64,000 nucleotides of DNA from Metridium senile. Its lineage: Eukaryota; Cnidaria; Anthozoa; Actiniaria; Metridiidae. Below the pieces are notes generated by a model, which saw nothing but the letters and a program-made list of their open reading frames with translations, was not told the origin of the DNA and ran no database searches. This document shows, one piece after another, positions 16,501 to 64,000 of the stretch. The stretch covers positions 10,775,619 to 10,839,618 of the forward strand of contig OX459097.1 of NCBI GenBank assembly GCA_949775045.1, read 5' to 3'. The stretch's first letter is position 1; the number at the start of each line of letters is the position of its first letter. Both the position numbers and the translations under genes were made by a program.

Positions 16501-19500
16501 ACAAATTTCACAAATTTTATATAGCTGGCTAGTAGATTGAAATAGAACAAATGTAATAAGAACACAAATTTCAATTTATATAGCGGCATTTACAGAAGCT
16601 CAATGGCGCTTTACAAAGTTTGTTAAAAATAACTTAATGTTGTTAATAACTTGGTAATAAATGTAAACTAGCGAGTAAACTGGTGTAGGCTGCGTCGGTG
16701 TATGATATAAACGATAGGTTATATAATGTAATTTATAACACCATAAAAAGTGTTGACTTAACTTTACTGACTGTTCGAGCTTTAGCCCTTCGTCGGAGTT
16801 AAAAAGGGATATGGTATGGTAATAAAATAAATATTTACAAGCTTTTACAATATATAAAACCAGATTAAGAGAGCTTTTTGGGGACAACTGATCTAAACAA
16901 AATAATACTATAAACCATGTAGGGATAATCTCCAGATTCATTTGAATATAAAACTTGTCTAAATGTGTAAAATATGTAATGTACTAGACAACTGTTTGTG
17001 TTATATGACCAAAACAAGTTGTTGCAGTGGTAAATGTTCATCATACGATAAACATTTCTTCTCAAAATCATTAATAATTCATGACCATTTCAGCCAACCA
17101 GATTGTCTAATTTAATTACGTGCATGCAGTACTGGGAAACCCAGTAAAACACTTCAATAATAAACTTGTTAGAGAAGTCATTTAAAACATGTGCTTCACC
17201 GGGTTTCCAAACACTTGAAAACAATAAAAAAGCACAATTTAAATAAAAAAACACAATTTTTTGCAAGCATTCCCGACTTCAAACCTCAACATTGTAAAGA
17301 GGGAGAGAGAGAAAGGCTAATTTAACTATAAAAAAGTATGCAGAATTTTCTGTAAAATCCTAAGGATTTTTGCATATTAGATAGATTTGACTCTCTCTTG
17401 TAAACGACCACTTTCTTCTGGTCCGAGGGTGATCGCTTATGAGAGTCAACTGTAGTAGTTAGCACAAAGTACCTGTATGGTTTTTCACCAGTGTGAATAT
17501 TGTTGTGTTCTCTCAAGTTCAGAGAAAAGCTGAATGTTTTACCACAGATTTCACATTTGTAAGGTTTGATTCCTGTATGCCTCATTTTGTGGTACTGATA
17601 ATGACCTAACATGTAGAATGCTCTGGGACAGAACTCACACTTGTATGGCTTTACACCTGGAAGATAAAAAGGCACTCTTCAACTATTTATTAAATGGAAA
17701 CTAGCGACTAAACTAGTATAGGCTGCGTCGGTGTTTGATAAATGATAGGTAATATAATGAAAGTTGTAACACCGTAAAAAATAGAAATAGAAACTAGCGA
17801 GTAAACTAGTATAGGCTGCATCGGTGTTTGATATAAGCGATAGTAATATAATGAAATTTGTAACACCATAAAAAATAGAAATAGAAACTAGCGAGTAAAC
17901 TAGTATAGGCTGCATCGGTGTTTGATATAAACGATAGGTAATATAATGAAAGTTGTAACACCGTAAAAAATGTTGACTTAACTTTACTGACGTTTCAAGC
18001 TTTAGCCCTTCGTCAGAGTAAAAAATTATTTATTAACTTATGCCTGATGTGTGAGACTTGTAACTCAACACTCTTTTATTATTACTTAAAAATTATGAAT
18101 AATTAATGACAATTTTAAAGAAATCATGTCTGTGATGAGCAATGTAAATCTCATACAGATTCATCATGATTTGGATAGGTTTCAACTTGAAAGTACTATA
18201 TTCGAGTTCGATCTGTAAGGGATATACAGTAGTGGCTCATCTTTGCTTCATCACTGTATATCCCATACAGATCGGCCACTCATACAGTAATAGTAAATAC
18301 AGTGACCTATTTTAAACATTGTTGTCAAAGCTAAAGCCACAGTCAATACTTCTAGGGCTGCAAAGGATGTTGGTATATTGTGTCTTGTTTGCAGGTTCTT
18401 CAAATGATTAGTTAGTTGTGTGTGTTTATAATTATATTTTCAGGTCAAACGGTTGCAGTGGTATATGAAAATGTTTATATAATTTTGCAGCACAATGCTG
18501 TTGTCGGCCAGCTGTCTCTCTCACACACTCCACACTACCTTCTATATTTACAAGCACACTGCATTAAACCTCTTTTCCTGGTCTAGTGTAGATATATATG
18601 TGATACAAACCTGTGTGCTTTCTCATGTGAACTTTCAAGTTTCCTGAAGAAGAGAGCTCATGGTTGCAAACTGAACACTTGTAAAGCTTTTGTCCTGTGA
18701 AAATGACAAACAGTTAAATAAATATAGAATAGAGGTTGTATTTAAAAGAATTAACAACTAAAGTTTGTTTCAAAAAAATTATTTATATTTTACTTACAGC
18801 TATATAAAAAAAATGTTGAATACTAAATAGTGCATTCCAAGACCAAAGGGCATTGTGGGTCTCATTAATTTGAAACAAAAAGCAAATATACAGCGATATA
18901 ACGGGTATTGTATAACAGGGTATATTGTTTTGAATGGAATGCACTAAGAATAAAATAGCTAATTATTACTTATTTTATTCTAAACCTTCTAACCTTCTTC
19001 TTTGCGCAGGCACGCAATAGATTGTCATAGTCTTCGCGCCGATATGCTTGATACACTTTATTTTTTTTCTTTAGTTTATCATGTTTCTTTAGATCTCGTT
19101 CATTTTCTATATGTTTGCATCCTAGTCTTTAGATAGTTATATACTTAGCATTGTAAGAGCCAAATTATGTTTGGATTATGCTAATAAACCATTATTATTA
19201 TTTTACTATTTATTATTATTATTCTAAACAATATTAAATGCCCCAGGATGCATTTCAATTTCAATGTTTTTTTAAATGGCTGTAAACATTATACCAAGCT
19301 TGTGGACTGCTAGCCCATTGGCACATGCTCTAGCTTTCAATATGCCTTACACAGGTGTAACAACAATACCTTAACATTGTTAACCTATATACTACTTATA
19401 CATTGCTTTTGGACTACTTGTCCATTCACACATGCTCTAGCTTTCAATATGCCTTACACAGGTGTAACAACAATACCTTAACATTGTTAACCTATATACT

Positions 19501-22500
19501 ACTTATACATTGCTTTTGGACTACTTGTCCATTCACACATGCTCTAGCTTTCAATATGCCTTACACAGTGTAACAACAGTACCTTAACATTGTTAACCCT
19601 GATGATGGGAAAGGAAAACCTCATTGACTACTGCATTTTCCATACCTGTATGAAGCCAGCCATGACACTTCAATTCCTTTTGTGTATTAAAAGACTTATC
19701 ACAGTGTTGACACTTAAACCTCTTGTTTCCTGTGTGTTTAGTCATGTGTCTCTTAAGATCCCAGTGGAAAGGAAACTTCTTGTCGCATAGCGTGCATTTG
19801 TAAGGCTTGAAGTCAGTATGGAGTATCCAATGTCGTTTTAAATGGCTAGCGCTACAGTAATGCTTGTTGCAGCGGTCACATGGCCAACGCAATCCTGAAT
19901 CTGTTGTGATAGGTGTCACAGACTCTGTAATAAAATTTACAATAAGATTAATTGAACATGTTGATGACATTAAGGGGGCTTTCATTTAATAGTGTATGGG
20001 GGGGGGGGGGTTTGTTTAAATCACTGGTTGTCTTTTCCAAATATTACCCAGCACCCCCTTCCTGGTTGAAAAAAATATCATAACCCCCCTATATTTTTCG
20101 TCCAGATTTTACTAAACCCCTATAAAACAGCATAAAACTTGTAACAACCCCCCTATATAGCTTCTGAAAAGAACATGACCCCCCCCCCCAAAAAAAACAA
20201 ACAATATCCCCCCCCCCCCCCCATACATATGTATAGAACTGGCACTTAGCCATCAGCTCTCCCACGTTAATTTAATATTCATTTGTTAATATTGTGCTTA
20301 TTCTTTTCACTATATAACTGTTCATTGAATCTACAAAATTAAATGTAATTTCTTCTTTACTGACAATGACTGTTGAAAACAAAAAGGTCTGAGTACTATT
20401 AGGTGACTGTAAAATAATTTCAATAGAATACAAGACACTTTGGATTGAATAGCTAAAACTTTTCTAAATTAAAAAGTTGTGTACTCTTTTCACATCAAAA
20501 AAGTTATGAAAAATTAATAAAACTCTTCAAACAAAAAGGAATCTGTTTGGATAGGTTAGGGTAGGTTTTGTTATGTAAATAGATGTATTTTCTTTTATAC
20601 CTAGTCATATATTTTATTCATTTATAACTATATTATTACTTTGTACATGTATTAAACTTAAACATTTGTTTTAAGAAGATTAATAAATATGTTTATTATT
20701 ATTGTTATTATAATTATGAATATACATCTTATTGCAAGAATGTTGTCCTGACTTTTGTAATTTAGTGGGAAAGGAATTAATGAAAAGACAAAAGAAGATC
20801 ACTCAAGCTGAACTTTTTCTTTAAGAAAGAGTTCAGCTTGAGTGATTTTCTTTTGTCTTTTAATAGAGCGGTTTTTGTACGAGTGGGAAACTGACCGTAC
20901 CGTACCGTAGCCGTAACCGTACCGTAAATTCTATAAAAACATTCGAAAATTCTACAGTAACAGTACCGTAACTGTGCGGTAAATATTACGGCCAGTTTCC
21001 CACTCAGACGAAAACCGCTCTAAATTCCTTTCCCACTAAAGTCAGGACGCAATTAGGTGTACACATAAGCATGGTGTACTCACTGATATCAAAGTCAAAC
21101 TGTTCTGGTTCAAAAGGAAACTTTTCCGGCATTTCTGTTGAATCAGGTTCAGGGTTTTCAGGAGGAGGATCATCCCTGAAAGCCATTGTTGGCCTATTAT
21201 CATTAGGCTTCCTTGTATTAGCACGAATACTTCTCTCAGCCTCCATCACTCCTACATCTTGTAGAGTCTGGTTAAGGTGTCTGTTCAGCACCTCATCAAA
21301 ACTGCTTGATGCTGATGTATCAGGTGCTTGACGTGGCCAATCATGACTGGCCGGGGCCGGATGCATGGGTGGGTCCCTTTCAGGGGGGTGACTGTAGGGT
21401 GTGGTTTGGGGGTAGTCATTGGGTGCACCACTTGAATTTGATGCTGGTTCTCCAGGACTTGCTGAGTCTATAAAGACAATGTATACAGTATATTAAGTAA
21501 AAACAAACCACACACAAAAAAATGTTCAAGAAAGAATAGTGATATAATTGTAATACATTTCAACAACAACAACAACAAAAACAACAACAACAAAAACAAC
21601 AAAAATACATAAACAGTTTAGCCTGCTTATCCGAGAAGATGTAAAGGTTTACAGCAAGATGCTCAAGACTGTGACCACTGATAATGTATTCGCCTACTTT
21701 TGTAGCGCCATCCTCCAATTAGCGTTTAGATCAGAGATAAGATAAGACAATCCTGTAATGCTGATAGGATAACAGCATAGACGAAAGTATTCGAATACAT
21801 TAGCGGTGGCCACACTTTTGGGCTCTTTGCTGTAACCATTTGCAGATGTCATTAGTATACACTGTAGCAGCATCCAACAACAACTGAGCCAACTGGTCAG
21901 CAATTTATTGGACTGTGATGTTTTAACTGTTACTGCTAGTCTTTGTTTACATATTTTACCATTTAGGTCATTCGCTCAATGTTCAGCATTTTAGACCACT
22001 CTGAATATATAATAGCCCGTAATTAAGAATCTCAACTGGCAAGTAGGCAAACCAGTTGGCTTTTTACAAGCATGGTCGAGAGACCAAATTTGACCTAATC
22101 AAAATCGGGACAAATACAGTCTCAGCTAATGGTCAGAGCAGGACTTGAACCTGGCACTACCAGATTGCGAGGCAAATGCACTTACATGTACCACTCCACC
22201 ATGCTACATCCATCTGACGATGCATAGTATTAATGTAATAATCATTAGCCACATTATAAAATGTATAAACATGCAATAAAATATAGCAGCTGTAAAATAA
22301 AAATTATAAATATTCATTACGACATGATAAAGATATTTATAAAAAATATCACACCATCAAACCACCATTACCACTGTTAATAGTACATACATATTACTCT
22401 TAGCTATCAAGACATACCATGGACAATAAGATCATATGCATCATGTGTAAGCGTTGTTGAATCAAATGTGATCAGACAAGGGACTTGATCTGGGAGACGA

Positions 22501-27600: not shown

Positions 27601-28629
27601 GTATTATTCTCTATATTAAACCAGACAGCTTTTAATTGAAATGTATCATACCAAAAGCCTCAAACATGATTATTATATATGCATTTTATTACCTGCACTT
27701 TTGCACATCAGTCTAAAATCACAAGCAGTGGCCAACTAATAAACACAAAAGAAATAAAACATCAACAGAGTAACTGAGCTTAGACAAGACATGCACAACC
27801 TTGGTTATGAGGCCCTGTTAGGGGGGGGGGGGGGGGGGGTCTGAATAGTCCATAATCCTGATTGAAGTTCATAAATAATCGGTAATTCTAAATTGTAAAT
27901 AATGATTTACCAAAAATATATTACAAACGAGTAATCCTAAATCCTCAATTGGTCCTAAATGCTGCAAAAATAATCCATAATCCTTAAACTTTTAGGTCAA
28001 TAATCCATATCCCTGCTCTAAAAACCCCTAATAATCCATAATCCTAAAACCCTAACAGGGCCTCGGTTATCATGACAAAAGCATTGCACAAAACATGAAA
28101 AACAGATTGACCCTTTTTTGCAGTCCTCCTATCTAATTTTCCGTAGCTGTACCTCAGCACCACCTCCAATAGCATGACCCTGTACAACAGCTACACTGAC
28201 CAAAGGCAATCGCCGAAGACGTGTCAATGTCCTATGCATGAAAAAGCACATTTTCGCGCCATCTTCTGGTGAAAGTATATCTTTAACCACACTTATATCC
28301 GCACCAGATGCAAACGTGCCTTTGTCTCCCTGTAACACGACTGCTTTGCCTTCCCTCCAAGGTTCTAGTTCATCGATAATTTCAGCAAGCTGTACCATCA
28401 TATGCCCTGTCATAGCGTTCTTGCGACTCGCGTTAGAAATAGTAATTACGGCGATGTGATTTGAGGGATGATAATTCAGTAGGATTTCTCCTCCCTGACC
28501 TGTCAATGGGCTAAGGTGGGAGCGAATTTCATCTTCGTCAAACAATGGAGGGCTAGTTGAAGCATAAAATGCTCGTCTATGTACTTTAAGAAAGCCTATA
28601 CGTCTGGAAATAGTCAGAAACCGATTCAT
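24629..28629 (-). CDS. ECHDC1: ECHDC1-like ethylmalonyl-CoA decarboxylase
   Basis: Five exons (28153-28629, 27693-27735, 26820-27001, 25248-25378, 24629-24701) join in phase to 301 residues, close to the family's usual size of about 300. The family belongs to the crotonase fold and removes side-product ethylmalonyl- or methylmalonyl-CoA by decarboxylation (metabolite repair). Crotonase features are clear: an oxyanion-hole segment GTFASGADIS at about 104-113, GHAIGGGAE at 151-159, LATACDFRLM at about 160-169 and SPGWGGGARLV at about 185-195. The last carries glycine where true hydratases have the catalytic glutamate region, as in ECHDC1. The N-terminus (residues 1-25) has many Arg/Lys and no acidic residue, looking like a mitochondrial presequence, while the vertebrate enzyme is cytosolic. 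The start is the first ATG of the open exon. Confidence 0.93.
24852..25045 (+). mobile_element. tRNA-derived SINE
   Basis: A-box-like tagctaagttgtttagtg and B-box-like gagtttgatcctc are followed by the body shared with 58967-59165 (tttaaat-catgtaaaa-ggagc-atgatgga, then gagtgcaccgtcagtt). It lies in the last intron of the ECHDC1-like gene. Confidence 0.7.
25799..25896. mobile_element. Hairpin element
   Basis: Arms of about 40 bases (aacgagcagcagtgttttatcaggtataaaatcc and its mirror) are separated by a short loop. This gives a near-perfect cruciform. Confidence 0.85.
25902..26440. mobile_element. MITE with ~45-bp ends, containing a tRNA-like segment
   Basis: The ends (aaactcattagtaattcatgaccattttgtccaat and its mirror near 26393-26437) are inverted repeats. 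Inside are a tRNA-like piece (26075-26150, B box ggttcgattcc) and a hairpin (gaagcattatataatg and mirror, about 26239-26285). Confidence 0.75.
27100..27385. mobile_element. G-tract MITE, ACCTTTTAGGGTC family, copy 1
   Basis: The ends gggttctcccttagaaaatg and attttctaagggaggaccc are inverted. The core repeats acctttttagggtc-like units about six times. A relative lies at 52928-53250. Confidence 0.75.
27810..28068. mobile_element. MITE, GAGGCCCTGTTAGGG family
   Basis: The ends gaggccctgttaggg and ccctaacagggcctc are perfect inverted repeats. A G run of about 19 follows the left end, and the core has repeated aataatccataatcc units. Confidence 0.85.
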
Positions 28630-29353
28630 TTTAAATCCTTCGTCGAGAAATTTGTCGAAGTGGCAATAACCAGCAGTCGTTACTCGCTGAATATGTTAGA
28701 GACTGGGAACGGTATTTTGAACTACACAGGTAGCTCAAAAGTGATTATGATTCAAAGGTGATTCAAAATCATAAAACAATACACATTTAACACATAACCG
28801 CGTATATTTCAATGACTGGTCATTGTGTGTTTGTATAGTATATATCTAATTCAAAAAAGGTTGACGGGGCGAACGGCGAACGGCGATTTCCTTCCGCTTC
28901 TTTTCGGCTTTCCTTTCCTTTCCTTCCGCTTCTTTTCGGATTTCCTTTCCTTTCCTTTCCTTTCCTTTCCTTTCCTTTCCTTTCCTTTCCTTTCCTTTCC
29001 TTCCGCTTATTTTCCTTTCCTTTCTTTCCTTTTCCTTTCCTTTTAAATTCTTTCTATTTTATTGTATTTCTAATTCTACTTCTGCGTGCAAAAACATCAA
29101 TCTGATACCATACTGAATTATTTTATTTATTTTATCTTATTATAACTTACACATATCATCTTAATTATAAGAATCTGATTATAATTCTTCCATAAAATCT
29201 ACATACCTTAAGCTATGTTTGTTTTTTTCAATATCAATTATTCTATATTTTACTGCCAATCGTCATTGTCGACAGAGCATATATAGAAACTTATCTTAAA
29301 TTTTCAATTAATTATCATTAATTCATAGATCATTAATTTGTTGTGTTTGTATG
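28630..29353. other. Intergenic, with (TTTCC)n at 28905-29042
   Basis: Head-side flank of the ECHDC1-like gene. A pure pyrimidine array of tttcc units, interrupted by cttccgcttcttttcgg blocks, runs from about 28890 to 29045. No TATA box was found upstream of the gene. Confidence 0.7.
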
Positions 29354-34767: not shown

Positions 34768-35342
34768 CTAGTTATACATTTTTGGATCTTGTAGCTTGCT
34801 CCAATGTGGAAGAGGCCTGTCGGAGTTGTACATACGTTGCCATAGTTTCAATTCGGTGCCCGTGGCGTGCGAACCAATTAGAGCCGATCCAATGACGTCA
34901 TTGCCATGCATGACTGACACTAGTAGGTCTACCGAGTCTAAGAGGTCAGCGTTTATATCATATGAGACAGCCTCGTTATAGGTTGGGTTCAAGTCTCCTT
35001 TTTTGGTAGTAGTCCTTTTCTTCTTGGATCGCTTGCCGTCTTGTAAAAGGGTTATTTTTACATAGGGATCTGGATTTGAAATACAGATCGGGTTATAATA
35101 CGTACGTGCCATCTGATTGTTCATTGATTGACTAATTGACTTACTGATTGAATATTTGATTGATTGATTGATTGTTTTTTATATAGATTGCTTGATTGAT
35201 TGGTTGGTTGATTGATTGATTAATTGATTGGTTGGTTGATTGGTTGATTGATTGGTTGGTTGATTGATTGGTTGTTTAATAATTGGTTGATTGATTGGTT
35301 GGCTGTTATATAGATTGATAAATTGGTTGATTGATTGGTTGG

Positions 35343-35416
<74 letters not shown>

Positions 35417-38332
35417 GGATGGATGGATGGATGGATGGATGGATGGATGGATGGATGGATGGATGGATGGATGGATGGATGGATGGATGGATGGATGGAT
35501 GGATTGATGGATTGATTGGTTGGTTGATTGATTGATTGGTTGTTATATAGATTGTTTGATGGGTTGATTGATTGAGGACTATAGATGATTATAATGACGA
35601 TTTACCTGTGCCTTTGATATTCACTGCTGGTAGATTACGAGCCTTGATTATGACCAATGTCAGTCGTTCAGCGGACTTCAAGTATCCCAATGATATTAGT
35701 ATCTCTCCTAGTTCCACTTCCTGGATTGTACAAAACAAAAATATAAGAACTTGAATTACTTGAGTTGGAGTGCAAAAATGGAAAACGCTAAACAACCCTG
35801 TATCTTTAAAAATTATAAACTCATGATCAAAACACTTTCCAATTTTACGATAAAATTCCAGAAAAGGGTACCCTGGGTTTCATAGGCCCTCTTCTTCCTT
35901 TCCTCTCCCCAATCCCCTCCTGAGCCTCTGGAACTCTGGGTATTTAAGAAAAGGGTTGAAGTTCGACCGAATGGCACTATGGCCGAGAAAGAATGGAGAG
36001 ACGAGACGAACGGCAAGTTGGGACGAGATGAGACGAGACCTAGAAAACACGCCGAAGGATTCCGGCCCAGCGCTGGTGTTCCTACCTCAATATTTTACTT
36101 GTTTACTAAGAGTTTTACATATAAAAATAAATAATGTTTTGCGGTCTAACTAGCTTTACTTACAAACCTTTTTGCTGGGTGTCAATTCTTTTAGAAACAC
36201 GTTGGGTTTCGACGAGTTGATTTCTCGTAGCGGTAAAACAACCTGTCCAATGACGTCATGCTTGGAGAACGTATCAAACGACATCAACGTTATCCATAGC
36301 GACTGCTCCTGAAGATTCTTTGTCTCAATATCAAACTCAAACGTCTCGTCAAATCGCGGATCTGATGTTTTTCTGTGTACGTTTGACTGTAGCTGGTTTT
36401 CAAAGTCGGGCAGTAATTGGATGATAGCGTAGGGGTTGCACGGTTGATCAGGGCCGTCAAAGTCCAACGAGGTGGTAGGCGGGATGACTAGGTTGACGGC
36501 TCGAACTAGACGGACCAACAAGACACGACGGTGATGGTCATACTCGACTATGAATTGTACTCTACCAAGGTTGGACGAGGTTTGTGCCTCTTTCTCGAAA
36601 GGATCTTCGATTTCCTAGTTGAATATAACGTCAAGCATTGAATCTGTCAGTGGGTCAGTTAGTCGGCCAGTCAGTCGATCAGTCAGTGGGTCAGTCAGTC
36701 AGTGGGTCAGTCAGTCAGTGGGTCAGTCAGTCGGTCAGTCAGTCAGTCGGTTAATCAATCAATCAGTCTGCATAGAAGCAAGGAAGCGCTGGTGATTATA
36801 ACAGGTGATATAATGGTTATAATGATGGTGATGGTGATGATGATGACGGTGATGACTATGGCGATGATAATGATGGTGGTGATAATGACGAGAATGATAT
36901 TGGTGGTGACGATGATGATAATGATGATAATAAAAATGGTTATGATGACGATAATGACGGTGACAATTAAGCTAAAAGCACCAGTATTAAATACCTCAAA
37001 TAGGTACATCTCTGGGTCCAGGCTTCCAAGGGGTGTAGCAGGGCCAGATACAGTTGATTCTGATATTGTGCGCGTTCGTTCTCGATTAGAATACTTATGA
37101 TACGGCGGCGTTTCGGAATACTTTCGTAAACGGTCTGGCACCGAGAACCTTCGGACCTTCGGTTGTACATGAACTTCACGAACATCTCCAGCTGGTGGGG
37201 TAATACAGCAACATTAAACTATTAGTCATTCGATGGTCGTTTGCTTTTTCTTTGCTGTTCAATCGTTTTTCTATTTTATTTGAAATGTCCTTATTTCTTC
37301 AGCCTCTTTTCTAGGGCTTTTCTCCTAGTTTTGAGGGGAGTTCTAACTATCGAAGAAATACCCTTGGCCTTGGCAATAGTCCCCTTCACAGTTCCCTGCG
37401 CCATCTTGAAAGGTAGCTGAACCTTTGCACGAAACGAGACGAATGTTAAGCTTGCAATGATAGAGACCTTTTAATTATCACCTTGCTGGACAATCATTCT
37501 CGAGTCTTTAGGGGCGGACCGTTTGACTTTTGAGCTGACGATCAAGCCAGATTTATTTTTTATTTTTTTTGTCACATATTTTTTTCCCCAGAGCCTGTAC
37601 TGTACGTTTTTATTCCTTGCTCAAAGGGCTGCAGGATAAATCTTCCAGCCCCCCCCCCCCCCCTCAAAAGTCAAATGGTCCGCCCCTTATATATCATGGC
37701 AAGCTCAACGTTCATCTCGCTTCGATTGAAAGACCGGCTACCTTTCTTTTTTTTGTAGGAAACTGCATGTGAAGGTAACTATATTTTGACACAACTTCGA
37801 CTTTTCGATCCCCTTCGCTTATGGTGGCCCGCCGCCCCACCCGAGACGCTAGCTCGCACTCCTTTTTGAAATATTACTACAATGTAATAATTAATACAAA
37901 CATTAAAATGATTTTAAATCCATGATTAGTAATAAACCTCTTTACCTTCCTTGTCTGTTTACCAAATTCAGATCACGTAAAGCTACTCTTGGGAGTTGAT
38001 TCTTTCACGTAAATATGTTATAACACGTTCATCATAAAAGAACAATTCTCAAGGAAATGACACGTGGTCTGAAATGGGCAATTTGCATACGGAGGTAAAG
38101 AGGTCTAATGTTAACGTGACTTACATGAAAAAGGAGGAGAACTTGCAAAGGGAAGTTGTAATGATACAGTTCTTTTTCTAGGCTCTTCCTCTTCCTTGGG
38201 GATGTTGCTGCCGTATTTCTCGGTTTTCTTTCGTAAATGATATTTATGCCAAATCACGACCAAATAAACTGTTACAAACAGCAGTATCGCGAAGAAGGCA
38301 GTCAGAGAAATAATCAATGCTGAAGAGGACAT
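34768..38332 (-). CDS. Synaptotagmin-15/17-like tandem C2 protein
   Basis: Five exons (38125-38334, 36995-37191, 36168-36614, 35606-35720, 34768-35069) join in phase; starting at the first ATG (38332) gives 422 residues. One N-terminal membrane segment (about 5-28) is followed by a basic linker, then C2A (about 145-280) and C2B (about 288-415). LDPEMYLFE before C2A and [12 protein letters not shown] between the domains match the synaptotagmin 15/17 branch by recollection. Calcium ligands are poor. In C2A the DPY aspartate is NPY and loop 3 reads [10 protein letters not shown]. In C2B the first ligand is Asn and loop 3 is shortened (VMHGNDVIG). The protein is therefore probably a calcium-independent membrane-trafficking adaptor. 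Two bases precede the ATG in its exon, so an upstream exon exists and may be untranslated or may add a few residues. Confidence 0.88.
35150..35560. repeat. (TTGA)n and (TGGA)n microsatellite
   Basis: Irregular gattgattggttg units are followed by pure (ttga) from about 35350 and (tgga) from about 35415 to 35505. It lies between the last two exons of the synaptotagmin-like gene. Confidence 0.97.
36640..36985. repeat. (TCAG)n-type and (GAT)n-type repeats in intron
   Basis: A gtcagtcagtgg array (about 36645-36770) is followed by gatgat-type triplets (about 36800-36970), between synaptotagmin exons 36168-36614 and 36995-37191. No exon is hidden in it. Confidence 0.85.
37381..37776. mobile_element. 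Palindromic MITE, GCGCCATCTTGAAAGG family, copy 3, with insertion
   Basis: Left half as in copies 1 and 2. The right half (caagctcaacgttcatctcg, then ggctacctttc) is displaced by an insertion of about 170 bases with inverted edges (aggggcggaccgtttgactt and aagtcaaatggtccgcccct) and a poly-C run. Confidence 0.8.
37936..38107. mobile_element. MITE, CCTCTTTAC family, copy 2
   Basis: Inverted orientation relative to 8511-8681. It shares gatcacgtaaagctactctt and cgttcatcataaaagaacaa. It ends 17 bases from synaptotagmin exon 38125-38334. Confidence 0.85.
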
Positions 38333-53289: not shown

Positions 53290-53640
53290 AACCCTAGTGA
53301 CTAATAGTTCACATGTGATCACAGGCGATCGTACTGGATTGCTTACTGGATGGCTTACAAGTGAAGGCTTGTTTACATATGATCACAGGCAATCGTACTG
53401 GATCGCTTACTGGATCGCTTACAAGTAAAGGCTTGTTTACATATGATCATAGGTGATCGTACTGGATCGCTTAATAGATCAAGACGCATAGGCTTGCTGT
53501 TCACATGTTCACTAGGATCGCAATACAAGTCAATTCTTGTACTGAATTAAATGATCGTAATGGATCGCTTACTGGAACGCGTGCCGACATTCTTACAAGG
53601 CTTGTTTGCATATCTTAATAGAAGCAAAGGCCTGTTCACA
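53290..53640. repeat. Degenerate leading part of the 55-bp satellite
   Basis: Spaced atcgtactggatcgctta and cttgtttacatatgatcaca blocks recur irregularly, grading into the regular array that follows. Confidence 0.8.
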
Positions 53641-54815
53641 TATGATCACTGGCGATCGTACTGGATCGCATATTGCAAGTAAAGACTTACTCACATAACA
53701 TCGCAGGCGATCGTACTGGATCGCATATTGCAAGTAAAGACTTGCTTACATAACATCGCAGGCGATCGTACTGGATCGCATATTGCAAGTAAAGACTTGC
53801 TTACATAACACGATCGTACTGGATCGCATATTGCAAGTAAAGACTTGCCTACATAACACGATCGTACTGGATCGCATATTGCAAGTAAAGACTTGCTCAC
53901 ATAACATCGCAGGCGATCGTATTTGATCGCATATTGCAAGTAAAGATTTGCTCACACAACATCACAGGCGATCGTACCTGATCGCATATTGCAACTAAAG
54001 ACTTCCTCACATAACATCGCAGGCGATCGTACTTGATCGCATATTGCAAGTAAAGACTTGCTTACATAAAATCACAGGCGATCGTACTTGATCGCATATT
54101 GCAAGTAAAGACCTGCTTACATAACACGATCGTACTGGATCGCATATTGCAAGTAAAGATTTGCTCACATAACATCGCAGGCGATCGTACTTGATCGCAT
54201 ATTGCAAGTAAAGATTTGCTCACATAACATCGCAGGCGATCGTACTTGAACGCATATTGCAAGTAAAGATTTGCTCACATAACATCGCAGGCGATCGTAC
54301 TTGATCGCATATTGCAAGTAAAGATTTGCTCACATAACATCGCAGGCGATCGTACTTGATAGCATATTGCAAGTAAAGATTTGCTCACATAACATCGCTG
54401 GCGATCGTACTTGACAGCATATTGCAAGTAAAGATTTGCTCACATAACATCGCAGGCGATCGTACCTGATCGCATATTGCAAGTAAAGATTTGCTCACAT
54501 AACATCGCAGGCGATCAGAATGGATCGCATATTGCAAGTAAAGATTTGCTCACATAACATCGCAGGCGATTGTACTTGATCGCATATTGCAAGTAAAGAT
54601 TTGCTCACATAACATCGCAGGCGATCGTACTTGATCGCATATTGCAAGTAAAGATTTGCTCACATAACATCGCAGGCGATCGTAATTGATCGCATACTGC
54701 AAGTAAAGATTTGCTCACATAACATCGCAGGCGATCGTACTTGATCGCATATTGCAAGTAAAGACTTGCTCACATAAATTCGCAGGCGATCGTACTTGAT
54801 AGCATATTAGGGAGA
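53640..54815. repeat. Satellite of ~55-bp units
   Basis: About 21 units contain gatcgcatattgcaagtaaa, gatttgctcacataacatcg and caggcgatcgtactt. Some early units are shortened by about 10 bases (acacgatcgtactgg). The unit contains the partly palindromic gcgatcgtacttgatcgc. Uniformity increases towards the right. Confidence 0.97.
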
Positions 54816-55185: not shown

Positions 55186-55468
55186 TATTTATGTAAATTA
55201 GCTGTAGGACTTTTAAACTTAAGATATATGGTCACTTACTAGCATACACGTGAAAGACTGAATTTATGAAAATCGCACATTCAGACATTTTGATATCTTT
55301 TACGTGAGTGGGCATCTATGCTCTTACTAAATCATTAAGCGTTTAGCTAAATTTCTCTTCTCGTAATACGATTGAATGCGAATGAATTATAACACTGACT
55401 CAAATTAAAATAAGCAACGCAAATCATGCTGGTAAGTGGCCATGGGTCTTTAATAAAGAACGGTTACC
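55186..55468. other. 3' flank of the PARP gene
   Basis: Read on the gene strand, an ATTAAA variant signal (about 20 bases after the stop) could serve polyadenylation. Nothing else is seen. Confidence 0.4.
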
Positions 55469-58400
55469 CTACATAACCGCACAGTTGTCAACCTTCTTTG
55501 GTCGGTTGTCAGGGACATTGACAGCCCTGGAACTCCACAAGTCTACCGTGTGCCTGGCAACGTCTTGAGCAATGGGAGGCAAATTGCTTAAGGACACATC
55601 TACTGACGTAGATGAAGCATTGGAAGACAAATGGTGTGAGGAAACATTGGATGACGTAGATGTTGGCATGGAGGCACTCCTGGAATAGACTCCCTGTGAT
55701 GTTGGCCTGGAAACTGTTTGACCAATAGTAGAGGGGCTTGGAGAGTAACGAACAGAGTTATGTGACGCCATGGCAGCTGCTTGACCACTATGGTACGGGT
55801 CTGGATATGGGCCATAATTAGGTGATGGCGTTGTCATAGAAACGTTTGGACCAATGGTTGCTGGGTATGATGCCAAATTGGAAGACGAAGGATTATTGGC
55901 GTGATCCATACCTTGACATGCGTATTCGATGACATATTCTGGGTAAAACTGATCGACGTCAAACATTGCAAACACCTGAGGGTTGTCTACACGGTCAACA
56001 CACGAATCGTAGCGATCACTATCTGGGTCATCGGGATTCTTAGGGGGAGGGCGACGATAGTTTTTCTCTCCCTTCGTGTACGAACCAACGAGTACTTTGG
56101 CTATAAACACATAGCGGATACCATCTTCATCATCATTGCAGTAACAATGACTGAACGAAGCGTCTCGTGCGAAGTACGCCCCCTCGCCATACTTGTTACC
56201 AGTTACATCACCGTACAAGCGCCAATCGAAGTTTTCTTTACATATCGATCGTATGTTTGTGTGAGAGGTGCCGTGGAATAGTTGGCGTTCGTCGAGGTTT
56301 TTGGACTCGGAGCGTTTGAGCATTTGGTCTTTTTTCCTTTAAGGTAAAGCAATAGAAGAGTTAGTCAATAATGTTGATGATGATGGCGACGTACACGGCT
56401 ATGATGATGGCAAAGACGACGATGATGATGATGATGATGATAATGACTATTATATCAAACTTTGTGGTAGAAACTTCGAGAACAAAAGACACTCAAAATA
56501 TAGTCAAGATCGATTAAACCTTTATGGGTTGAAACAAAAGACCCTAAACAATAGATCATTCCCGAGCGGGAAATTTGAATATGATGATATATGATGATCA
56601 GTGATGATGGTGACAATGTCATGATGTAACTAATAATTTGAAAAGCCCACTGAGAAATCTTAATAAAGTATGTATAATGTTGGTGATGATGATGGTAACA
56701 ACGATGATCATGATGATGGTGATGATAATGACTATCAGTGATGATGGTGACAATGTTAATTAATGGTAGTCACGATGTATCTAATAATGTGGCTGAGAAA
56801 GATGATGATACTGACAATAATGAAGATGATGGTGATGATAATGACTATCAGTGATGATGGTGACAATGTTAATTAATGGTAGTCACGATGTATCTAATAA
56901 TGTGGCTGAGAAAAATGATGATACTGACAATAATGAAGATGATGATGATGATAATGACAAAAAGAAGTAAATGATGATGTAACAATGTTTGATCATAATG
57001 ACAATTTTCACGTTAAACATAAATATCAAAATATTATTAATGTCATGACGACGATAATGTTAATAACAATGATGTTTGATAATGATCTTGATAATGATGA
57101 CGACGATAATGTTAATAACAATGATGTTTGATAATGATCTTGATAATGATGACGACGATAATGTTAATAGCAATGATGTTTGATAATGATCTTGATAATG
57201 ATGACGACGATAATGTTAATAACAATGATGTTTGATAATGATCTTGATAATGATGACGACGATAATGTTAATAACAATGATGTTTGATAATGATCTTGAT
57301 AATGATGACGACGATAATGTTGGTGATGTTGGTGTTGGTGATGTTGGACGATAAATAACGATAATGTTAATAACAATAATGTTTGATAATGATCTTGATA
57401 ATTATGATGACAATAAGAATACCTTTTGTACTTTTCCCACATGAACGGGTTTTGTACTCTATTAACGGAATTAATAGTGACTTCACGGCCACCCATGGAA
57501 TTGACAAACAGTGATTCAATGTTCTTGAATTCCTTAGATTTAGTGTTCAATTTCTTGAGAAGAAACGTTTGGCTTTCTGTCATCTTTTTCCAGTTGCTGG
57601 GGATTTGACTTGCTGACATCTCAGGCATTTTGAAAGTCCTGTTATAATAATTGAATACTTAAATTAAACACTGATGCTTTATGATCTAGTTCTAATGATA
57701 AAAAATATTAAATACTACACTGCAAAAACGGCTGAGTATAGATACAACTCAAAATATTGAGTAAATCATGCATTCCGGATGACACTTTATAGTGAGTAAA
57801 CCCAACTCTAGTGAGTAATAGTGAAACAATGAGTATATTGTACTCAATGGCACATCTACATTTATGTTTACTCTTGGTTTTACTCACTATAAAGTGTCAT
57901 CCTGAATGCATGACTTACTCAATATTTTGAGTTATATCTACTCAGCCGTTTTTGCAATGTAACTATTTTGAAGCCAACATAACTCTACCCAGGGGGGAGG
58001 GGGGGGGATATTGGGTATGGTCATCTTATCTCTTTTTTAGAGACCTTTTAACGCCTTGTCGGACAATTATTCACGTGTCATTGCAATCGTCTCGCTTTGA
58101 TTTTGTTTTTATGTGATATTTATTCAATAGGACTTCTGTTATTTTTGTTCACCTAACCAACCCCCCCCCCCCCCCCCCCCCGATACTCTCACCCCTCAGT
58201 CCACATAGTCCCAAAGCAACTGGAGATAATCCCAAAACAACTGGAGAGAGTCCCAAAGCAACTGAAGATAATCCCAAAACAACTGGAGATAGTCCCAAAG
58301 CAACTGGAATTAGTCCCAAAGCAACTGGAATTAGTCCCAAAGCAACTGGAAATAGTCCCAAAGAAACTGGAATTAGTCCCAAAGCAACTGGAAATAGTCC

Positions 58401-61400
58401 CAAAGAAACTGGAACTAGTCCCAAAGAAACTGGAAATAGTCCCAAAGAAACTGGAAATATAGTCCCAAAGAAACTGGAGATAGTCCCAAAGAAACTGGAG
58501 ATAGTCCCAAAGAAACTGGAGATAATCCCAAAGAAACTGGAAATAGTCTCAAAGCAACTGGAAATAGTCCCAAAGCAACTGGAAATAGTCCCAAAATTGG
58601 AAATTACCTTTTCAGTTGATTGAAGTCCTTACGACTAACAAACTGAGGTCTTCTTATAACTTCTCGCTTAGTAAGGAACTGGACATCCATATTCTTTTGA
58701 CACATGTCATTGAAGTACAACCTGTAGTCATTTCTACCAACAGAGAAATTGTAGCGACTCATTCCTTCTTGGTAGAAGCGCTCAATGGCCTTGGACGTGG
58801 GTTCCTTTGAGCCCTGAGTTACAAACAAAATAAGAATAACTTCATATGTAAGGCTATCTTTGTCATTATCACTATAAACATTATCAAATGAAAATAATCA
58901 TCATTGGCATAATCATTATCAATATCGTTGTTGTCATTGATATTATCCCTATCAAGTCATCAATTAAGAAGTAAGGATGGCACAGTTGGTTAGTGCATGG
59001 CATTCTGTGTGAGAGGTCCCGAGTTCAATTTCCAGTGACCATCCTTGTTTCGACTTCTCTTCTTTCCGTGTTGCTTTAAATAGATGTAAAACGGAGCAAT
59101 GATGGAGAGAGGGAAGTAAAATGAGTGCACCATCAGTTCTCTGGAAGATCAGCTTCGGCTGAAGGGACTTCCGACATAAAATACTATTCTTTATTTTTAT
59201 CACCATCACCATTCCTGACACTTTTATATTTGTCATCACCATTAACACCACCTCACCATTACCACAAACATCACCATGACCATCACCATGACCACCATCA
59301 CCATGACCACCATCACTATCCCTACCAAATTCATAACCCATAGAGCAGATTTCGTATGACTATGAAAAACGTATGGCATGAACACAGTCAAGGCAAGGCA
59401 AGACATATTTCTACAACCATCATCACTACATGACAGACTAAGCACCACAATTCTTGGTTTGCTACCATGCTTTCTCAGGAGAGCAAATTGAACGAAATTA
59501 CCACCAGTCACGTTGATGGTTTTCTTTTGTCAAGACCACCAGCATGGCTGCTGTTTCTTTTGTTCAATTCACCTATTCATGCCAGAAAATTCCTTATAAA
59601 CCTCGTATTTAATAATTTATGAGAAATTTACAAAAGTTATCCTAAAGGTGATGAGTGTTGTAAATCTTGATACAAAATCGTTCTGCTTTCCAAAAGTTTT
59701 AACTTGCAATTTCTCTTTGAAATTTACTTCTATCTTGACAATATAAGTAAAATATAAAAGAAATGACCTAGACATTTGAAAGATCATTTACAACATTCAC
59801 TCCAATACATGGCTGCTCATATTGTAAACATTACTTACTTTTCTGGGTTGGTATTCAACATATAGATCATGTTCATTCTTCCAGTACCAACACCAAGTGG
59901 TTGCCAAAGAACACTCAGGGATGAGCACATCAGAGGGGGTAGACAGTCTCTTTAATGGTATATTAAGCTCTTCATTATCAAGTGAACCAATATGCATGGT
60001 TTTAAAATCTATGTTGTAGATGTATGGTACATTGTGCATATGAGACCTAAATTGAAATAAATAGATAAGAAGATAAATAAACAAATGAAAATATAAATAG
60101 TAAAAAAAAAAAAACCATGCAGACAGACATATAAAAAACAAATAAACAAACAAATGGGCAAACAGACAGACAGATAAAAAAAAAATGAACAAACAAATAG
60201 GCAAACAAACATACAGACAGACAGACATATAAAAAACAAATGGGCAAACAGACAGACAGATAAAAAAACCCAAATGAACAAACAAATGGGCAAACAGACA
60301 GACAGATAAAAAAAAAATGAACAAACAAATAGGCATACAAACATACATACAGACAGACATATAAAAAACAAATAAACAAACAAATGGGCAAACACACAGA
60401 CAGATAAAAAAAATGAACAAACAAATAGGCATACAAACATACAGACAGACAGACATATAAAAAACAAATAAACAAACAAATGAGCAAACAGACAGACAAA
60501 TAAAAAAAAATGAACAAAAAAAAAAAGAATGATCATAGTGAAAATGGTATGCAGTGTAAGGAAAAGGAAGAGAAAAGGAACATGAAAAATGGGGAGGGAA
60601 GAAAGGAGAGGGAAGAAAATGGAAGGGAATAAAATGGAAGGAAATAAAATGGAAGGGAATAAAAGATGGAAAAGAAAGGTAATGAAAAGGAAGGAAAAGG
60701 AAGGGAAGGGAACATGAAAAATGGGGAGGGAAGAAAGGAGAGGGAAGAAAATGAAAGGGAATAAAATGGAAGGAAATAAAATGGAAGGGAATAAAAGATG
60801 GAAAAGAAAGGGAATGAAAAGGAAGGAAAAGGAAGGGAAGGGAACATGAAAAATGGGGAGGGAAGAAAGGAGAGGGGAGAAAATGAAAGGGAATAAAATG
60901 GAAGGAAATAAAATGGAAGGGAATAAAAGATGGAAAAGAAAGGGAATGAAAAGGAAGGAAAAGGAAGGAAAAGGAAGGGAAGGGAACATGAAAAATGGGG
61001 AGGGAAGAAAGGAGAGGGAAGAAAATGAAAGGGAATAAAATGGAAGGAAATAAAATGGAAGGGAATAAAAGATGGAAAAGAAAGGGAATGAAAAGGAAGG
61101 AAAAGGAAGGGAAGGGAACATGAAAAATGGGGAGGGAAGAAAGGAGAGAGAAGAAAACGAAAGGGAATAAAATGGAAGGGAATAAAAGATAGAAAAGAAA
61201 GTGAATGAAAAGGAAGGGAACATGAAAAATGGGGAGGGAAGAAAATGGAAGGGTGAGATGGAAAGGAAAGGGAATGGAAAGGAAAAGGAAGGGGAGGAAA
61301 AGGTGGTAGAAAAGAGAGACAAGAGAGTTCAACAAGAATATTGGGAAGGAGAGATTGAATAAAATAGCACAAAATAGACTCACAAAATAATTATAAACTA

Positions 61401-64000
61401 AACACGAATTACATCTTGGTACAACTTACAACTCGGGCTTTGATGATAAATCCAATTTCATAGATATCACTCCAGCCATGTCACTGATGTTATCTTCACA
61501 GTACAATTTCTCAATATCTCCATTTTCTTTTGGGTCAACCATTTTCCAATCATTACTGCCTGACATGTAAACCCACTGATAGGGCAATGAACAGTGATGG
61601 TCATGACATTTGCTTCCTTGATCACATTGACCCATAAGAAATGCAAGACAAATAGGATTAGTGAGATCTGCAGCAGTCTTGACATGGTCTGAAAGACAAA
61701 AATACAAAGAGTAAGCCAATAGTCATGGCTTTTGTTGTGAAACAAATACATGTCTAACAATTGAAAACTGAACAGGAAACATGCATAGGTGATGTGTGCA
61801 GTTATAAATTACCAGGGATACCAGAGTGGTTTTCATAAACCTGGGAAACACACTTTAGTGTATTTAGTACTACATGTATATTGCACTTGTTTTGTTAATT
61901 AAAAAAGAATACCAGGTAAATGGATTCATGAATTAATAAAAGAATGAGGGAAAGAAAGAGTTAATAAATCAATTAACTTAAAATGAATGAATGAATGAAT
62001 GAAGGAATGAATGAATGAATGGATGGATGGATGGATGGATGAATGAATGAATGAATGAATGAATGAATGAATGAATGAATGAATGAATGAATGAATGAAT
62101 GAATGAATGAATGAATGAATGAATGAATGAATGAAAAGATGGATGTTTGGATGGAAGGATAAACAAACCAACTAATAGCATGTGTTATAATTATCAAACT
62201 TACATTTGGTAGAGTCAGTTTTGGGGACCTTTGTCTCAGTTTTCTTGCTTTCCTTTTCCACGACCTCAGTAGATTTGCCAACAGCAGCATTGGAATTCCT
62301 ACCTTCAATCTCAACAAGAAGTGTCTTAGCAAACATATATGGCTTAATTTTAGGATTAAGATGAATCCTAAATCTTGCTAACAAGTCTTTGGTGAATTGT
62401 TGTTTAAGAGCATTTTCATGCGCCAGTTTACACTGATTGGGGCATCTTCTGTGGCCATAATTCTTGCAAATATGTACTTTAGTACATCGCTTTCCTCGGT
62501 AACAACAGCGATTGTTGTAGTCCATGCAGACTTGAGGGGTGGATGACAAGATCTGTGAAGACAAACAATAATCATGATAAATTATTCAAATTAACACACA
62601 ATTAAATCCTCAGTTGTAGTTTATACCCGATAATATAGAGACCTTTTCATGGTTTTCATCAATCAACCTCCGAATTGATGTAATAAATTGTGTTGTGTAA
62701 TAAATTGTTTATAATTTGACTACAGCTTTTGGTAATTTAAGGAATGTTTACAATATCAAACAATTGAAAGACTTACAAATTTCACGGGTTGTGGTCAAAT
62801 TCTAAAGAATATATCACATGCTATTGAGACAAAGGTTGATCGATGAGAACCGTGAAAAGTGCTATTGAATGATTGGCATGGAAATACAATGAGATGTCCA
62901 TAGCCATGCTGGCTAAACGTGCATCTGGTTAATTTTGGAGTGGTTTTTAGGTAACCATAGTGATGTATTTGTTATAACACCATTTCTTTTAGTAAATCCT
63001 TTTTTTCTAAGTTTTCTCAAATTAACTCAATTGCCATTAGAATTTTCATTAATGCACATTATGATTTATGAATATTAATACTTAACAAAAAAATGATTCA
63101 ATAAGAAAATTACAGCGCCATGCACCTTACCATGGCTACCTAATTAAAGTTTTGTACAAGTTAACCAATCAGAATTTGACCTTGATATAAAAGACATGCT
63201 GAGTGTCAAACAGTAAACACTTTGAAATGTTCAAAGCGAAGACAAGAGTGAAGTTTACAAGTACCTGAAAAACCTCCCAGGATGTTTAAATTTGAAAAGG
63301 TGTAGCAAATAATTTGAAAAGAGAAACTTTTGAACGCTAAGCTAACTTGTACAAAACTTTAATTGGGTGGCCACAGTAAGGCATGTTATGCTGTAACGTA
63401 TATGGAAGTGAAATTTATGGATGGAAAAGTTGAAAACTATTTATGTTGATGGATAAATGGGAGAAAGAATTATGACTTACCAACTGCCGCAGTTGTCTGT
63501 TGTCAAACTGATTTTCAGGGAAAATCCTTGAGGCAACTTCTTGGTTGTGGCTATCTTTGAAAGTATGATACTTATTACAAGAACCATGATAATTACTACA
63601 CCTTCCATTAATAATATACTCCTTACATACATGGAAATACGAACAGTTCTCCTGAGTACAAGGCGTATTCCCATTATACTTGAAACACATTCTGGCTTGA
63701 TGTGAAACAGCCTTGACTTCTTCAATATTCCCACTGGAATCCTCCACCAATAGGAAACTTGCCTTATGACTCCGAAACCAGTGCCCTTGCTCCTTGAAAC
63801 GAGGATCCCACAGATTGACATTGGTAGAAATGTCAGAAAACGTGGCTGTTCCACCATATTCCATAATTAGACAGTTGAAGATTCCTTTTTGGGAGGCATT
63901 TTTTATTTGGTCTGGTTGAGTGGCATCATCTGTCTCTTGAAGGGGGTCTGGTAAGGAGAAAGCTTCGGCTGGTTGGGATAGGCTGTTATCACCAAGACTG
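55469..64000 (-). CDS. PARP12/ZAP-like CCCH zinc-finger mono-ADP-ribosyltransferase (5' end outside window)
   Basis: Seven exons (63481-64000 open at the window edge, 62204-62552, 61430-61688, 59839-60046, 58608-58813, 57423-57638, 55469-56336) join in phase to 874 residues. Numbering from the first whole codon: a GG-containing winged-helix-like segment (about 40-100), CCCH fingers at 105-123, 125-145, 182-200, 202-218 and 303-321, two WWE-type units (about 325-520) and a PARP catalytic domain (about 590-730). The ADP-ribosyltransferase motifs are H607 in HGTS and Y640 in GAYFARD. YPEYVIEY carries a hydrophobic residue at the place of the polymerase glutamate, implying mono-ADP-ribosylation. 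The five-finger-WWE-PARP order is that of PARP12 and ZAP (PARP13), RNA-binding antiviral proteins of vertebrates. Unusually, about 140 Ser/Pro/Thr-rich residues follow, ending in CAVM, a CaaX prenylation box. Finger 4 has a short C-x3-C spacing. Confidence 0.93.
56390..57000. repeat. (GAT)n-rich intron with a ~125-bp duplication
   Basis: Irregular gat triplets fill the intron. A block containing atgatggtgacaatgttaat and gtcacgatgtatctaataat is directly repeated at about 56730 and 56850. Confidence 0.85.
57030..57335. repeat. Tandem ~58-bp units
   Basis: About five units contain tgatgacgacgataatgtta and caatgatgtttgataatgat, in the last intron of the PARP gene. Confidence 0.95.
57717..57962. 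mobile_element. MITE, CACTGCAAAAACGGCTGAG family
   Basis: The ends acactgcaaaaacggctgag and ctcagccgtttttgcaatgt are inverted, with arms extending about 75 bases (atgacactttatagtgagta and mirror). It starts about 80 bases past PARP exon 57423-57638. Confidence 0.92.
58039..58102. mobile_element. Fragment of the GCGCCATCTTGAAAGG MITE family
   Basis: Only the middle of the family (agagaccttttaacgccttg to caatcgtctcgcttt) remains; both ends are missing. Confidence 0.6.
58195..58600. repeat. Minisatellite of 21-bp units beside a PARP exon
   Basis: About 19 units of agtcccaaagcaactggaaat with variants. On the gene strand each unit supplies a tttccag, and the array starts less than 10 bases after the splice donor of exon 58608-58813. 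Confidence 0.97.
58967..59165 (+). mobile_element. tRNA-derived SINE, best copy
   Basis: A-box tggcacagttggttagtgc and B-box gagttcaatttcc, 30-odd bases apart, begin a tRNA-like head. The body (gttgctttaaatagatgtaa, then gagtgcaccatcagtt) is shared with 24852-25045 and, reversed, with 3060-3215 and 30115-30275. Confidence 0.8.
59450..59575. mobile_element. MITE, CCACCAGTCACGTTGATGG family, copy 2 (right end lost)
   Basis: Matches 30305-30470 from the left end to ttttgttcaattcacc; the last part is missing. Confidence 0.8.
60055..60530. repeat. Minisatellite of CAAA/CAGA-rich units
   Basis: Longer units built from acaaacaaatgggcaaacag, acagacagataaaaaa and atgaacaaacaaataggc recur about five times, starting a few bases past PARP exon 59839-60046. 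The 528-codon minus frame through this region is an artefact joining the exon to repeats. Confidence 0.95.
60555..61265. repeat. Purine-only minisatellite, ~125-bp units
   Basis: Five units contain aagggaacatgaaaaatgg, ggaagaaaggagag and gaataaaatggaaggaaa on the plus strand. Almost every base is A or G apart from scattered T. Confidence 0.96.
61978..62134. repeat. (GAAT)n/(GGAT)n microsatellite
   Basis: About 38 gaat units with a short ggat block, between PARP exons 61430-61688 and 62204-62552. Confidence 0.97.
62553..63480. other. PARP intron with an inverted pair
   Basis: The large intron before exon 62204-62552. A block ending accatggctacctaattaaagttttgtacaag (about 63130) is mirrored near 63345-63380 (cttgtacaaaactttaattgggtggccacagtaaggca), so a MITE of about 260 bases (63120-63385) is present. 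Confidence 0.6.

What the first reader, a model, noticed from the sequence alone, without database searches (positions are those of the whole stretch)
55469..56336. PARP12/ZAP-like protein ends in a CaaX prenylation box
The sequence shows the PARP domain followed by about 140 low-complexity Ser/Pro/Thr residues and then Cys-Ala-Val-Met before the stop. In vertebrates the long isoform of ZAP (PARP13) ends in a CaaX box whose farnesylation targets it to endomembranes. I know of no general rule that PARP12-type proteins outside vertebrates carry one. If real, a membrane-anchored CCCH-WWE-PARP protein may be ancestral or convergent. Here H607 and Y640 are both present, unlike inactive ZAP, so an active mono-ART with a lipid anchor is predicted.
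Basis: partly seen in the sequence, partly recalled or inferred. Interest (0 to 1): 0.8.

Follow-up and report, generated by a model that had tools for sequence, protein, structure and literature searches.

The report
Sea anemone PARP with lipid-anchor tail
A sea-anemone relative of the human antiviral protein ZAP ends in a signal for attaching a fatty membrane anchor, and the same ending turns up in relatives from corals, molluscs, starfish and fish, so the anchor looks far older than a recent published account says.

Summary
A minus-strand gene encodes finger regions, WWE, a PARP domain and a 148-residue tail ending Cys-Ala-Val-Met at the stop; the catalytic triad is H-Y-I. The nearest protein by identity and tree is from the sea anemone Actinostola. 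The box is no chance ending: of 295 relatives with a complete PARP end, 114 end in a strict CaaX, while the motif slid inward 1-15 residues occurs at most once per position. Owners: Cnidaria 9 of 17, Mollusca 7 of 27, Echinodermata 4 of 4, Hemichordata 1 of 2, Cephalochordata 2 of 7, a ray-finned fish clade 58 of 77, tetrapod ZAP clade 29 of 34, but vertebrate PARP12 clade only 2 of 119. All 49 CaaX rows aligned keep catalytic His and Tyr. Best reading: an ancestral, active, farnesylated RNA-binding mono-ART, its anchor kept in ZAP and lost in PARP12. This conflicts with a 2025 paper placing CaaX gain in early tetrapods. One origin is favoured, not proven: three of twelve ancestral-state runs oppose it for vertebrates. 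Prenylation, localisation and antiviral function are untested.

The parts
63481..63999 (-). coding exon: segment before and including CCCH-type fingers; frame continues upstream beyond the window
   Evidence: open frame, GTAAGT donor; 38% identical to Acropora P0019 over 63894..63478
62204..62552 (-). coding exon: CCCH-type finger region
   Evidence: AG/GTAAGT sites in phase; match to coral proteins P0019 and P0003
61430..61688 (-). coding exon: further CCCH-type finger (by eye), possible first WWE (inferred)
   Evidence: 65% identical to Actinostola P0002
59839..60046 (-). coding exon: residues 377-445, including start of the best WWE match
   Evidence: 69% identical to P0002; WWE from residue 427
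58608..58813 (-). coding exon: WWE domain
   Evidence: Pfam WWE at residues 427-498
57423..57638 (-). coding exon: 5' part of PARP domain
   Evidence: Pfam PARP starts at residue 548
55469..56336 (-). last coding exon: 3' part of PARP domain with H607, Y640 and third triad residue Ile, Ser/Thr/Pro-rich tail, CaaX box, TAG stop
55916..56336 (-). PARP part of the last exon, up to residue 726
   Evidence: match to human PARP12 2pqf ends at residue 726
55472..55915 (-). 148-residue tail after the PARP domain
55472..55483 (-). CaaX box Cys-Ala-Val-Met, preceded by RPKKVDN
   Evidence: read in the sequence
55449..55454 (-). possible ATTAAA polyadenylation signal just after the stop (unproven)

Best explanation
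The gene encodes a PARP12/ZAP-family mono-ADP-ribosyltransferase whose C-terminal CAVM is a farnesylation signal. Shown here: domain order, the intact H-Y-I triad, the box at the exact C-terminus, its recurrence in relatives from five other animal groups (molluscs, echinoderms, hemichordate, cephalochordates, vertebrates), and a farnesyltransferase beta subunit gene in the same genome. Inferred: the cysteine is farnesylated; with nearby basic residues as a second contact and the long flexible tail as a tether, the protein sits on the cytosolic face of endomembranes; its fingers hold RNA and its PARP domain ADP-ribosylates targets there, in an antiviral or stress response. The anchor is best read as an old feature of the family, kept in ZAP and lost in canonical vertebrate PARP12.
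For: Strict CaaX at the end of 114 of 295 relatives, against 0 or 1 at each of 15 slid positions. Cys at -4 in 90 of 133 tails of 15 residues or more; at -2, -3 and -5 to -20 never more than 3; 11 at -1, the X position. The searches drew their words from regions that exclude the box (the first reached 34 residues into the tail), so the box did not select the hits. Tails are Cys-poor: 30 Cys in 12,509 residues before the last four, in 88 long-tailed CaaX rows. X is S, M, Q, A or C in 105 of 114. Lys/Arg averages 2.62 in the ten residues before the Cys, against 0.88 and 0.83 in the two preceding tens; Asp/Glu also rises, 1.24 against 0.40 and 0.42. Of all collected rows with a named source: Cnidaria 9 of 17 (window included), Mollusca 7 of 27, Echinodermata 4 of 4, Hemichordata 1 of 2, Cephalochordata 2 of 7, Arthropoda 0 of 1; in a fast tree of all 295 rows the smallest clade holding 13 chosen ray-finned rows has 58 of 77, that holding 11 ZAP rows 29 of 34, and the PARP12 clade 2 of 119; the two are lungfish rows. 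All 49 CaaX rows of the 87-row set keep H and Y. On the careful 80-row tree the vertebrates are one clade (100/100) with the fish CaaX group (100/98), ZAP (100/98) and PARP12 (99/96) inside it. The genome holds a farnesyltransferase beta subunit gene (E 5e-165 to solved structures) and alpha-repeat loci. Farnesylation of the ZAP-L CaaX box and its antiviral role are reported in PMC8568172 (passages).
Against: No lipidation or localisation data for an invertebrate member were seen. The tree's deep order is weak (28/37 at the midpoint root) and the root is not inferred. A single gain needs 11-12 losses. Two-state models give the vertebrate ancestor CaaX at 0.84-0.99 in nine of twelve runs, but 0.0, 0.0 and 0.23 in the three that set six doubtful rows to unknown and let gain and loss rates differ. 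Tails are not alignable: 23 identical positions between 148 and 83 residues in window and Actinostola, and that alignment does not even pair the boxes. Of 133 rows with a tail, 43 lack Cys at -4, 17 of them in the fish clade, some perhaps from faulty gene models. Most molluscan and cephalochordate rows lack the box.
Confidence: 0.7

Rival explanations
1. Convergence: an unstructured Ser/Pro/Thr tail repeatedly evolved a CaaX box because membrane tethering of an RNA-binding ART is useful against viruses. The box works the same way but was not inherited from one ancestor.
For: The tails cannot be aligned. Tail-less and CaaX rows are mixed over the tree; the fewest changes are 10 on 80 rows. Models with six rows unknown and unequal rates prefer gains, with loss rate 0.0 in two of three rootings.
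Against: Gain-only needs 19 gains, against 11-12 losses after one gain. A box needs a Cys at exactly -4 plus fitting neighbours in tails with 0.24% Cys, whereas a stop or a point change removes it. Holding nine tail-less invertebrate rows together, which fits one gain, is not rejected (AU p 0.253; the group was named after seeing the tree).
Confidence: 0.2
2. The box is chance or a gene-model artefact in this window; the protein is not prenylated.
For: No transcript was seen; a four-residue motif alone is weak evidence.
Against: The exon is open to a clear stop, and the nearest relative, 63% identical over the search region, ends in CVVM. The positional controls speak against chance for the family.
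Confidence: 0.05
3. The box is real but read by another route, for instance geranylgeranylation, or an unprenylated Cys used for palmitoylation.
For: Seven of 114 strict boxes end in Leu, which, as recalled, favours geranylgeranyltransferase I; the genome has further loci matching the prenyltransferase beta family on C15 and C3.
Against: The window's X is Met, and 105 of 114 end in S, M, Q, A or C, which as recalled suit farnesyltransferase; a farnesyltransferase beta subunit gene is present.
Confidence: 0.1

Closest known systems
ZAP-L (PARP13, ZC3HAV1), tetrapods
   Same: CCCH fingers, WWE, PARP domain, C-terminal CaaX; farnesylation of ZAP-L is described in PMC8568172 (passages)
   Different: Window protein lies outside the vertebrate clade, has a 148-residue tail where 9 of 11 aligned ZAP-group rows have 7-10 residues, and keeps H-Y-I; human ZAP is described as catalytically deviant
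PARP12, vertebrates
   Same: domain order; best solved-structure match is human PARP12 2pqf, E 4.2e-44; H-Y-I triad
   Different: 117 of 119 rows of the PARP12 clade lack CaaX and 106 of 119 have fewer than 15 residues after the PARP domain; PMC8568172 states that PARP12 lacks the motif
Ray-finned fish PARP12-like genes (some labelled si:ch73-252i11.1)
   Same: long tail (75 of 77 rows with 15 residues or more) and terminal CaaX in 58 of 77 rows; H and Y in the 13 rows aligned
   Different: vertebrate lineage; the window's X is Met
Tail-less anthozoan PARP12 (Nematostella P0129, Porites P0158, two copies on C9 of this genome)
   Same: PARP domain with H and Y in the two rows aligned
   Different: stop directly after the PARP domain, no CaaX; C9 copies are 61-63% identical to Nematostella but 45-46% to the window protein in the PARP part

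Membership tests
PARP12/ZAP family (CCCH-WWE-PARP) | PARP catalytic domain | tested here: met
   Pfam PF00644, 90.5 bits against cut-off 26.7
PARP12/ZAP family (CCCH-WWE-PARP) | WWE domain | tested here: met
   Pfam PF02825, 48.9 bits against 21.1
PARP12/ZAP family (CCCH-WWE-PARP) | CCCH zinc fingers | tested here: inconclusive
   zf-CCCH_PARP12 at 16 bits, below its cut-off of 27; Torus at 17, below 29. Cys/His spacing by eye and matches to coral members fit
PARP12/ZAP family (CCCH-WWE-PARP) | groups with family members in a tree | tested here: met
   with Actinostola 100/100, with corals 96/81 on an 80-row tree; no outgroup was included
ZAP (orthologue) | lies in the vertebrate ZAP clade | tested here: not met
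   outside the vertebrate clade, support 100/100
ZAP (orthologue) | CpG-RNA binding by N-terminal fingers | not tested
   the likely N-terminal exon lies outside the window in L009; binding residues were not compared
active mono-ART (H-Y-hydrophobic triad) | His, Tyr and third residue Ile | tested here: met
   H607, Y640, Ile in the third column; that this triad marks mono-ARTs is recalled
active mono-ART (H-Y-hydrophobic triad) | transferase activity | not testable with these tools
   needs an assay
CaaX-prenylated protein | Cys at -4, aliphatic at -2, fitting X | tested here: met
   CAVM
CaaX-prenylated protein | farnesyltransferase in the organism | tested here: met
   beta subunit gene on C2; alpha-repeat loci, not assigned to a particular enzyme
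CaaX-prenylated protein | RCE1 and ICMT processing enzymes in the organism | not tested
   family searches not answered
CaaX-prenylated protein | lipid attached in vivo | not testable with these tools
   needs labelling or mass spectrometry

The most novel reading that the evidence does not exclude
The lipid anchor is an ancestral feature of the animal PARP12/ZAP family, present before cnidarians and bilaterians split, on an enzyme with an intact triad. ZAP inherited the anchor and, in the human lineage, dropped catalysis; canonical PARP12 kept catalysis and dropped the anchor. Ray-finned fish retain a CaaX form that may be a co-orthologue of ZAP (one clade with ZAP is not rejected, AU p 0.364).
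Probability: 0.65. Interest if true: 0.72.

Novelty: new variant of a known kind. Interest (0 to 1): 0.62.

Why it matters
PMC12204182 (section 5 read whole, other passages seen) places the gain of the CaaX box in an early tetrapod and treats membrane anchoring as a late step in the making of ZAP. The box in cnidarians, molluscs, echinoderms, a hemichordate, amphioxus, ray-finned fish and lungfish turns that order round: anchoring would be the old state, and its loss in PARP12 the change. It also predicts a catalytically intact, membrane-tethered ART that can be tested in anemones, corals, oysters or zebrafish, and offers a natural experiment on splitting two functions between duplicate genes. 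In eight searches of the open-access library, whose listings I saw, and in the passages I opened from six of those papers, nothing described CaaX boxes in fish or invertebrate members; the other listed papers were not opened and subscription papers are mostly not held.

Tried and rejected
Chance ending: rejected by the positional and slid-motif controls. ZAP orthologue: rejected by the tree. No prenylation predictor was available; composition, X residue and upstream residues were used instead. The 87 tree rows were chosen by hand from 298 sequences, with their endings already seen, so the 13 of 13 and 11 of 11 of the fish and ZAP groups are partly by construction; a fast tree of all 295 rows gave the fairer 58 of 77 and 29 of 34. 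The quick 87-row tree had very long branches; seven rows were dropped for the careful tree: Biomphalaria P0281, Meganyctiphanes P0290 and Ptychodera P0001 (long), Liolophura P0292 (33% filled), Montipora P0023 (doubtful model), Montipora P0026 and Acropora P0027 (near copies). Three of the 298 had no complete PARP end and were left out of counts, though one of them, P0289, is among the 27 molluscan rows. Each protein search listed only the best 120 of 1454, 959 and 352 hits; the rest were not seen. Three of 117 C-at-minus-4 endings, all Biomphalaria CTSI, are not strict CaaX and look like chance; Pelmatolapia P0217 CSFS and P0271 CHVN were counted but may be chance too. Ancestral-state modelling proved sensitive to rates and doubtful rows and is not leaned on. 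The splice between the N-terminal open frame in L009 and the next exon was not settled. Structure prediction was not run. No outgroup was used: no PARP11 or TIPARP sequences were at hand.

Full report
What is there. The finding's coordinates match the last coding exon of a minus-strand gene exactly. Seven exons with GT-AG sites and consistent phases give 874 residues; the frame is open to the window's end, so the start lies beyond it. The window is contig C3:10775619-10839618 of a 389 Mb assembly. Just upstream, in L009, the same strand carries a segment matching the start of the Actinostola protein and an open frame with finger-like sequence that starts MEFCPSSGR. I take these as the 5' part of the gene, by analogy with coral proteins of 1,388 and 1,395 residues, but the joining splice was not settled.

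Domains. Pfam gives PARP and WWE above cut-off; two finger families score below theirs. The best solved structure is the human PARP12 catalytic domain. His607, Tyr640 and a third-position Ile are in place; that this pattern marks mono-ART activity is recalled knowledge.

The tail. After the PARP end come 148 residues, rich in Ser, Thr and Pro, of which the last four are CAVM, then the stop. The nearest protein by identity and by tree, from the sea anemone Actinostola, is 63% identical over the search region and ends CVVM; the best E-value went to a Ptychodera protein with repeated modules and no box. The two anemone tails share little else.

The family survey. Three protein searches used words from WWE-PARP regions and not the box. 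Each listed the best 120 of 1454, 959 and 352 hits; 297 different proteins were collected. With the window protein that is 298 sequences, 295 with a complete PARP end. Of these, 117 have Cys at -4 and 114 a strict CaaX. Moved inward by one to fifteen residues the motif appears 0 or 1 times per position. Of the 133 with a tail of at least 15 residues, 90 have Cys at -4; of the 162 shorter ones, 27 do, 24 of them strict. The sequences are related to each other, so these are not independent trials, but the sharp peak at one position points to selection.

Who has it. Named rows: Cnidaria 9 of 17 with the window, Mollusca 7 of 27, Echinodermata 4 of 4, Hemichordata 1 of 2, Cephalochordata 2 of 7, Arthropoda 0 of 1. 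In a fast tree of all 295 rows, the smallest clade holding 13 chosen ray-finned CaaX rows has 58 of 77, the one holding 11 chosen ZAP rows 29 of 34, and the PARP12 clade 2 of 119; those two are lungfish. All 49 CaaX rows in the 87-row set keep H and Y.

The tree. Rows were cut at the PARP end, so the tail did not shape the tree. On 80 hand-chosen rows the vertebrates form one clade (100/100), with the fish CaaX group (100/98), ZAP (100/98) and PARP12 (99/96) inside it; deep branches are weak. The label needs 10 changes, against 25 on average in shuffles. One gain implies 11-12 losses, gain-only 19 gains. Holding nine tail-less invertebrate rows together is not rejected (AU p 0.253), nor is a clade of fish CaaX plus ZAP (AU p 0.364); both groups were named after seeing the tree. 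Two-state models favour CaaX in the vertebrate ancestor in nine of twelve runs (0.84-0.99) and oppose it in three (0.0, 0.0, 0.23).

Two forms in one genome. The genome also holds two PARP12-like genes on C9 whose frame stops directly after the PARP domain; of the six named proteins compared, tail-less Nematostella and Porites proteins are nearest. Anthozoans thus have an anchored and a plain form side by side.

Machinery. The genome encodes a farnesyltransferase beta subunit (E 5e-165 against solved structures) and loci with alpha-type repeats. RCE1 and ICMT searches did not complete.

Mechanism. Most likely the Cys is farnesylated, the last three residues are removed and the end methylated (recalled pathway). 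Basic residues are enriched just before the Cys across the family, with a smaller rise of acidic ones, and may help membrane contact. The long tail would work as a tether that lets the RNA-binding and catalytic parts reach targets on endomembranes. For ZAP-L, PMC8568172 reports that farnesylation is needed for activity against several viruses (passages). PMC12582503 finds the motif needed against one retrovirus, but also that adding it to ZAP-S abolished restriction of a CpG-enriched influenza virus (passages), so the anchor's effect depends on the virus. Carrying any of this over to cnidarians is inference.

Against print. PMC12204182 concludes that the box was acquired in early tetrapods (section 5 read; its supplementary tables were not seen, and its survey covers vertebrates). 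PMC8568172 notes that PARP12 lacks the box. PMC8102003 traces the family to before the cnidarian split; the words CaaX, prenyl and farnesyl do not occur in its main text. The sequences here agree with the age of the family and with the lack of a box in PARP12, and disagree with a tetrapod origin of the box.

Noticed in passing
53636-54808: Minisatellite of 55 bases, about 22 copies, 91% matches, downstream of the gene.
   Followed up: no
56712-56958, 57045-57416, 58205-58595, 60120-60522, 60558-61187: Introns of the gene hold different tandem arrays (periods 113, 52, 21, 43-132 and 132 bases).
   Followed up: no
G000 contig C10, 6.19-6.85 Mb: A cluster of PARP-domain exons: 16 of the 24 matches lie here, 7 of them with a stop inside the match; looks like a lineage expansion of another PARP type.
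   Followed up: no
G000 C9:3569930-3570349 and C9:3580032-3580451: Two tail-less PARP12-like genes about 10 kb apart, near to Nematostella P0129 and Porites P0158.
   Followed up: partly
P0260 (Alosa) PARP domain: Third triad position is Glu rather than Ile/Val/Leu in the alignment, the residue that (recalled) goes with polymer formation; may be an alignment slip.
   Followed up: no
P0003 (Oculina): Predicted protein carries two WWE-PARP modules, the second followed by the CaaX tail; may be a gene fusion or a model error.
   Followed up: no
14915-19985: Minus-strand open frames that look by eye like C2H2 zinc fingers.
   Followed up: no
28132-28695: Minus-strand open frame that looks by eye like a crotonase/enoyl-CoA hydratase.
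   Followed up: no
34771-36614: Minus-strand open frames that look by eye like C2 domains of a synaptotagmin type.
   Followed up: no
57721-57959: Long inverted repeat with ends reading TGCAAAAACGGCTGAGTA, inside an intron, resembling a small foldback transposon (seen by eye).
   Followed up: no
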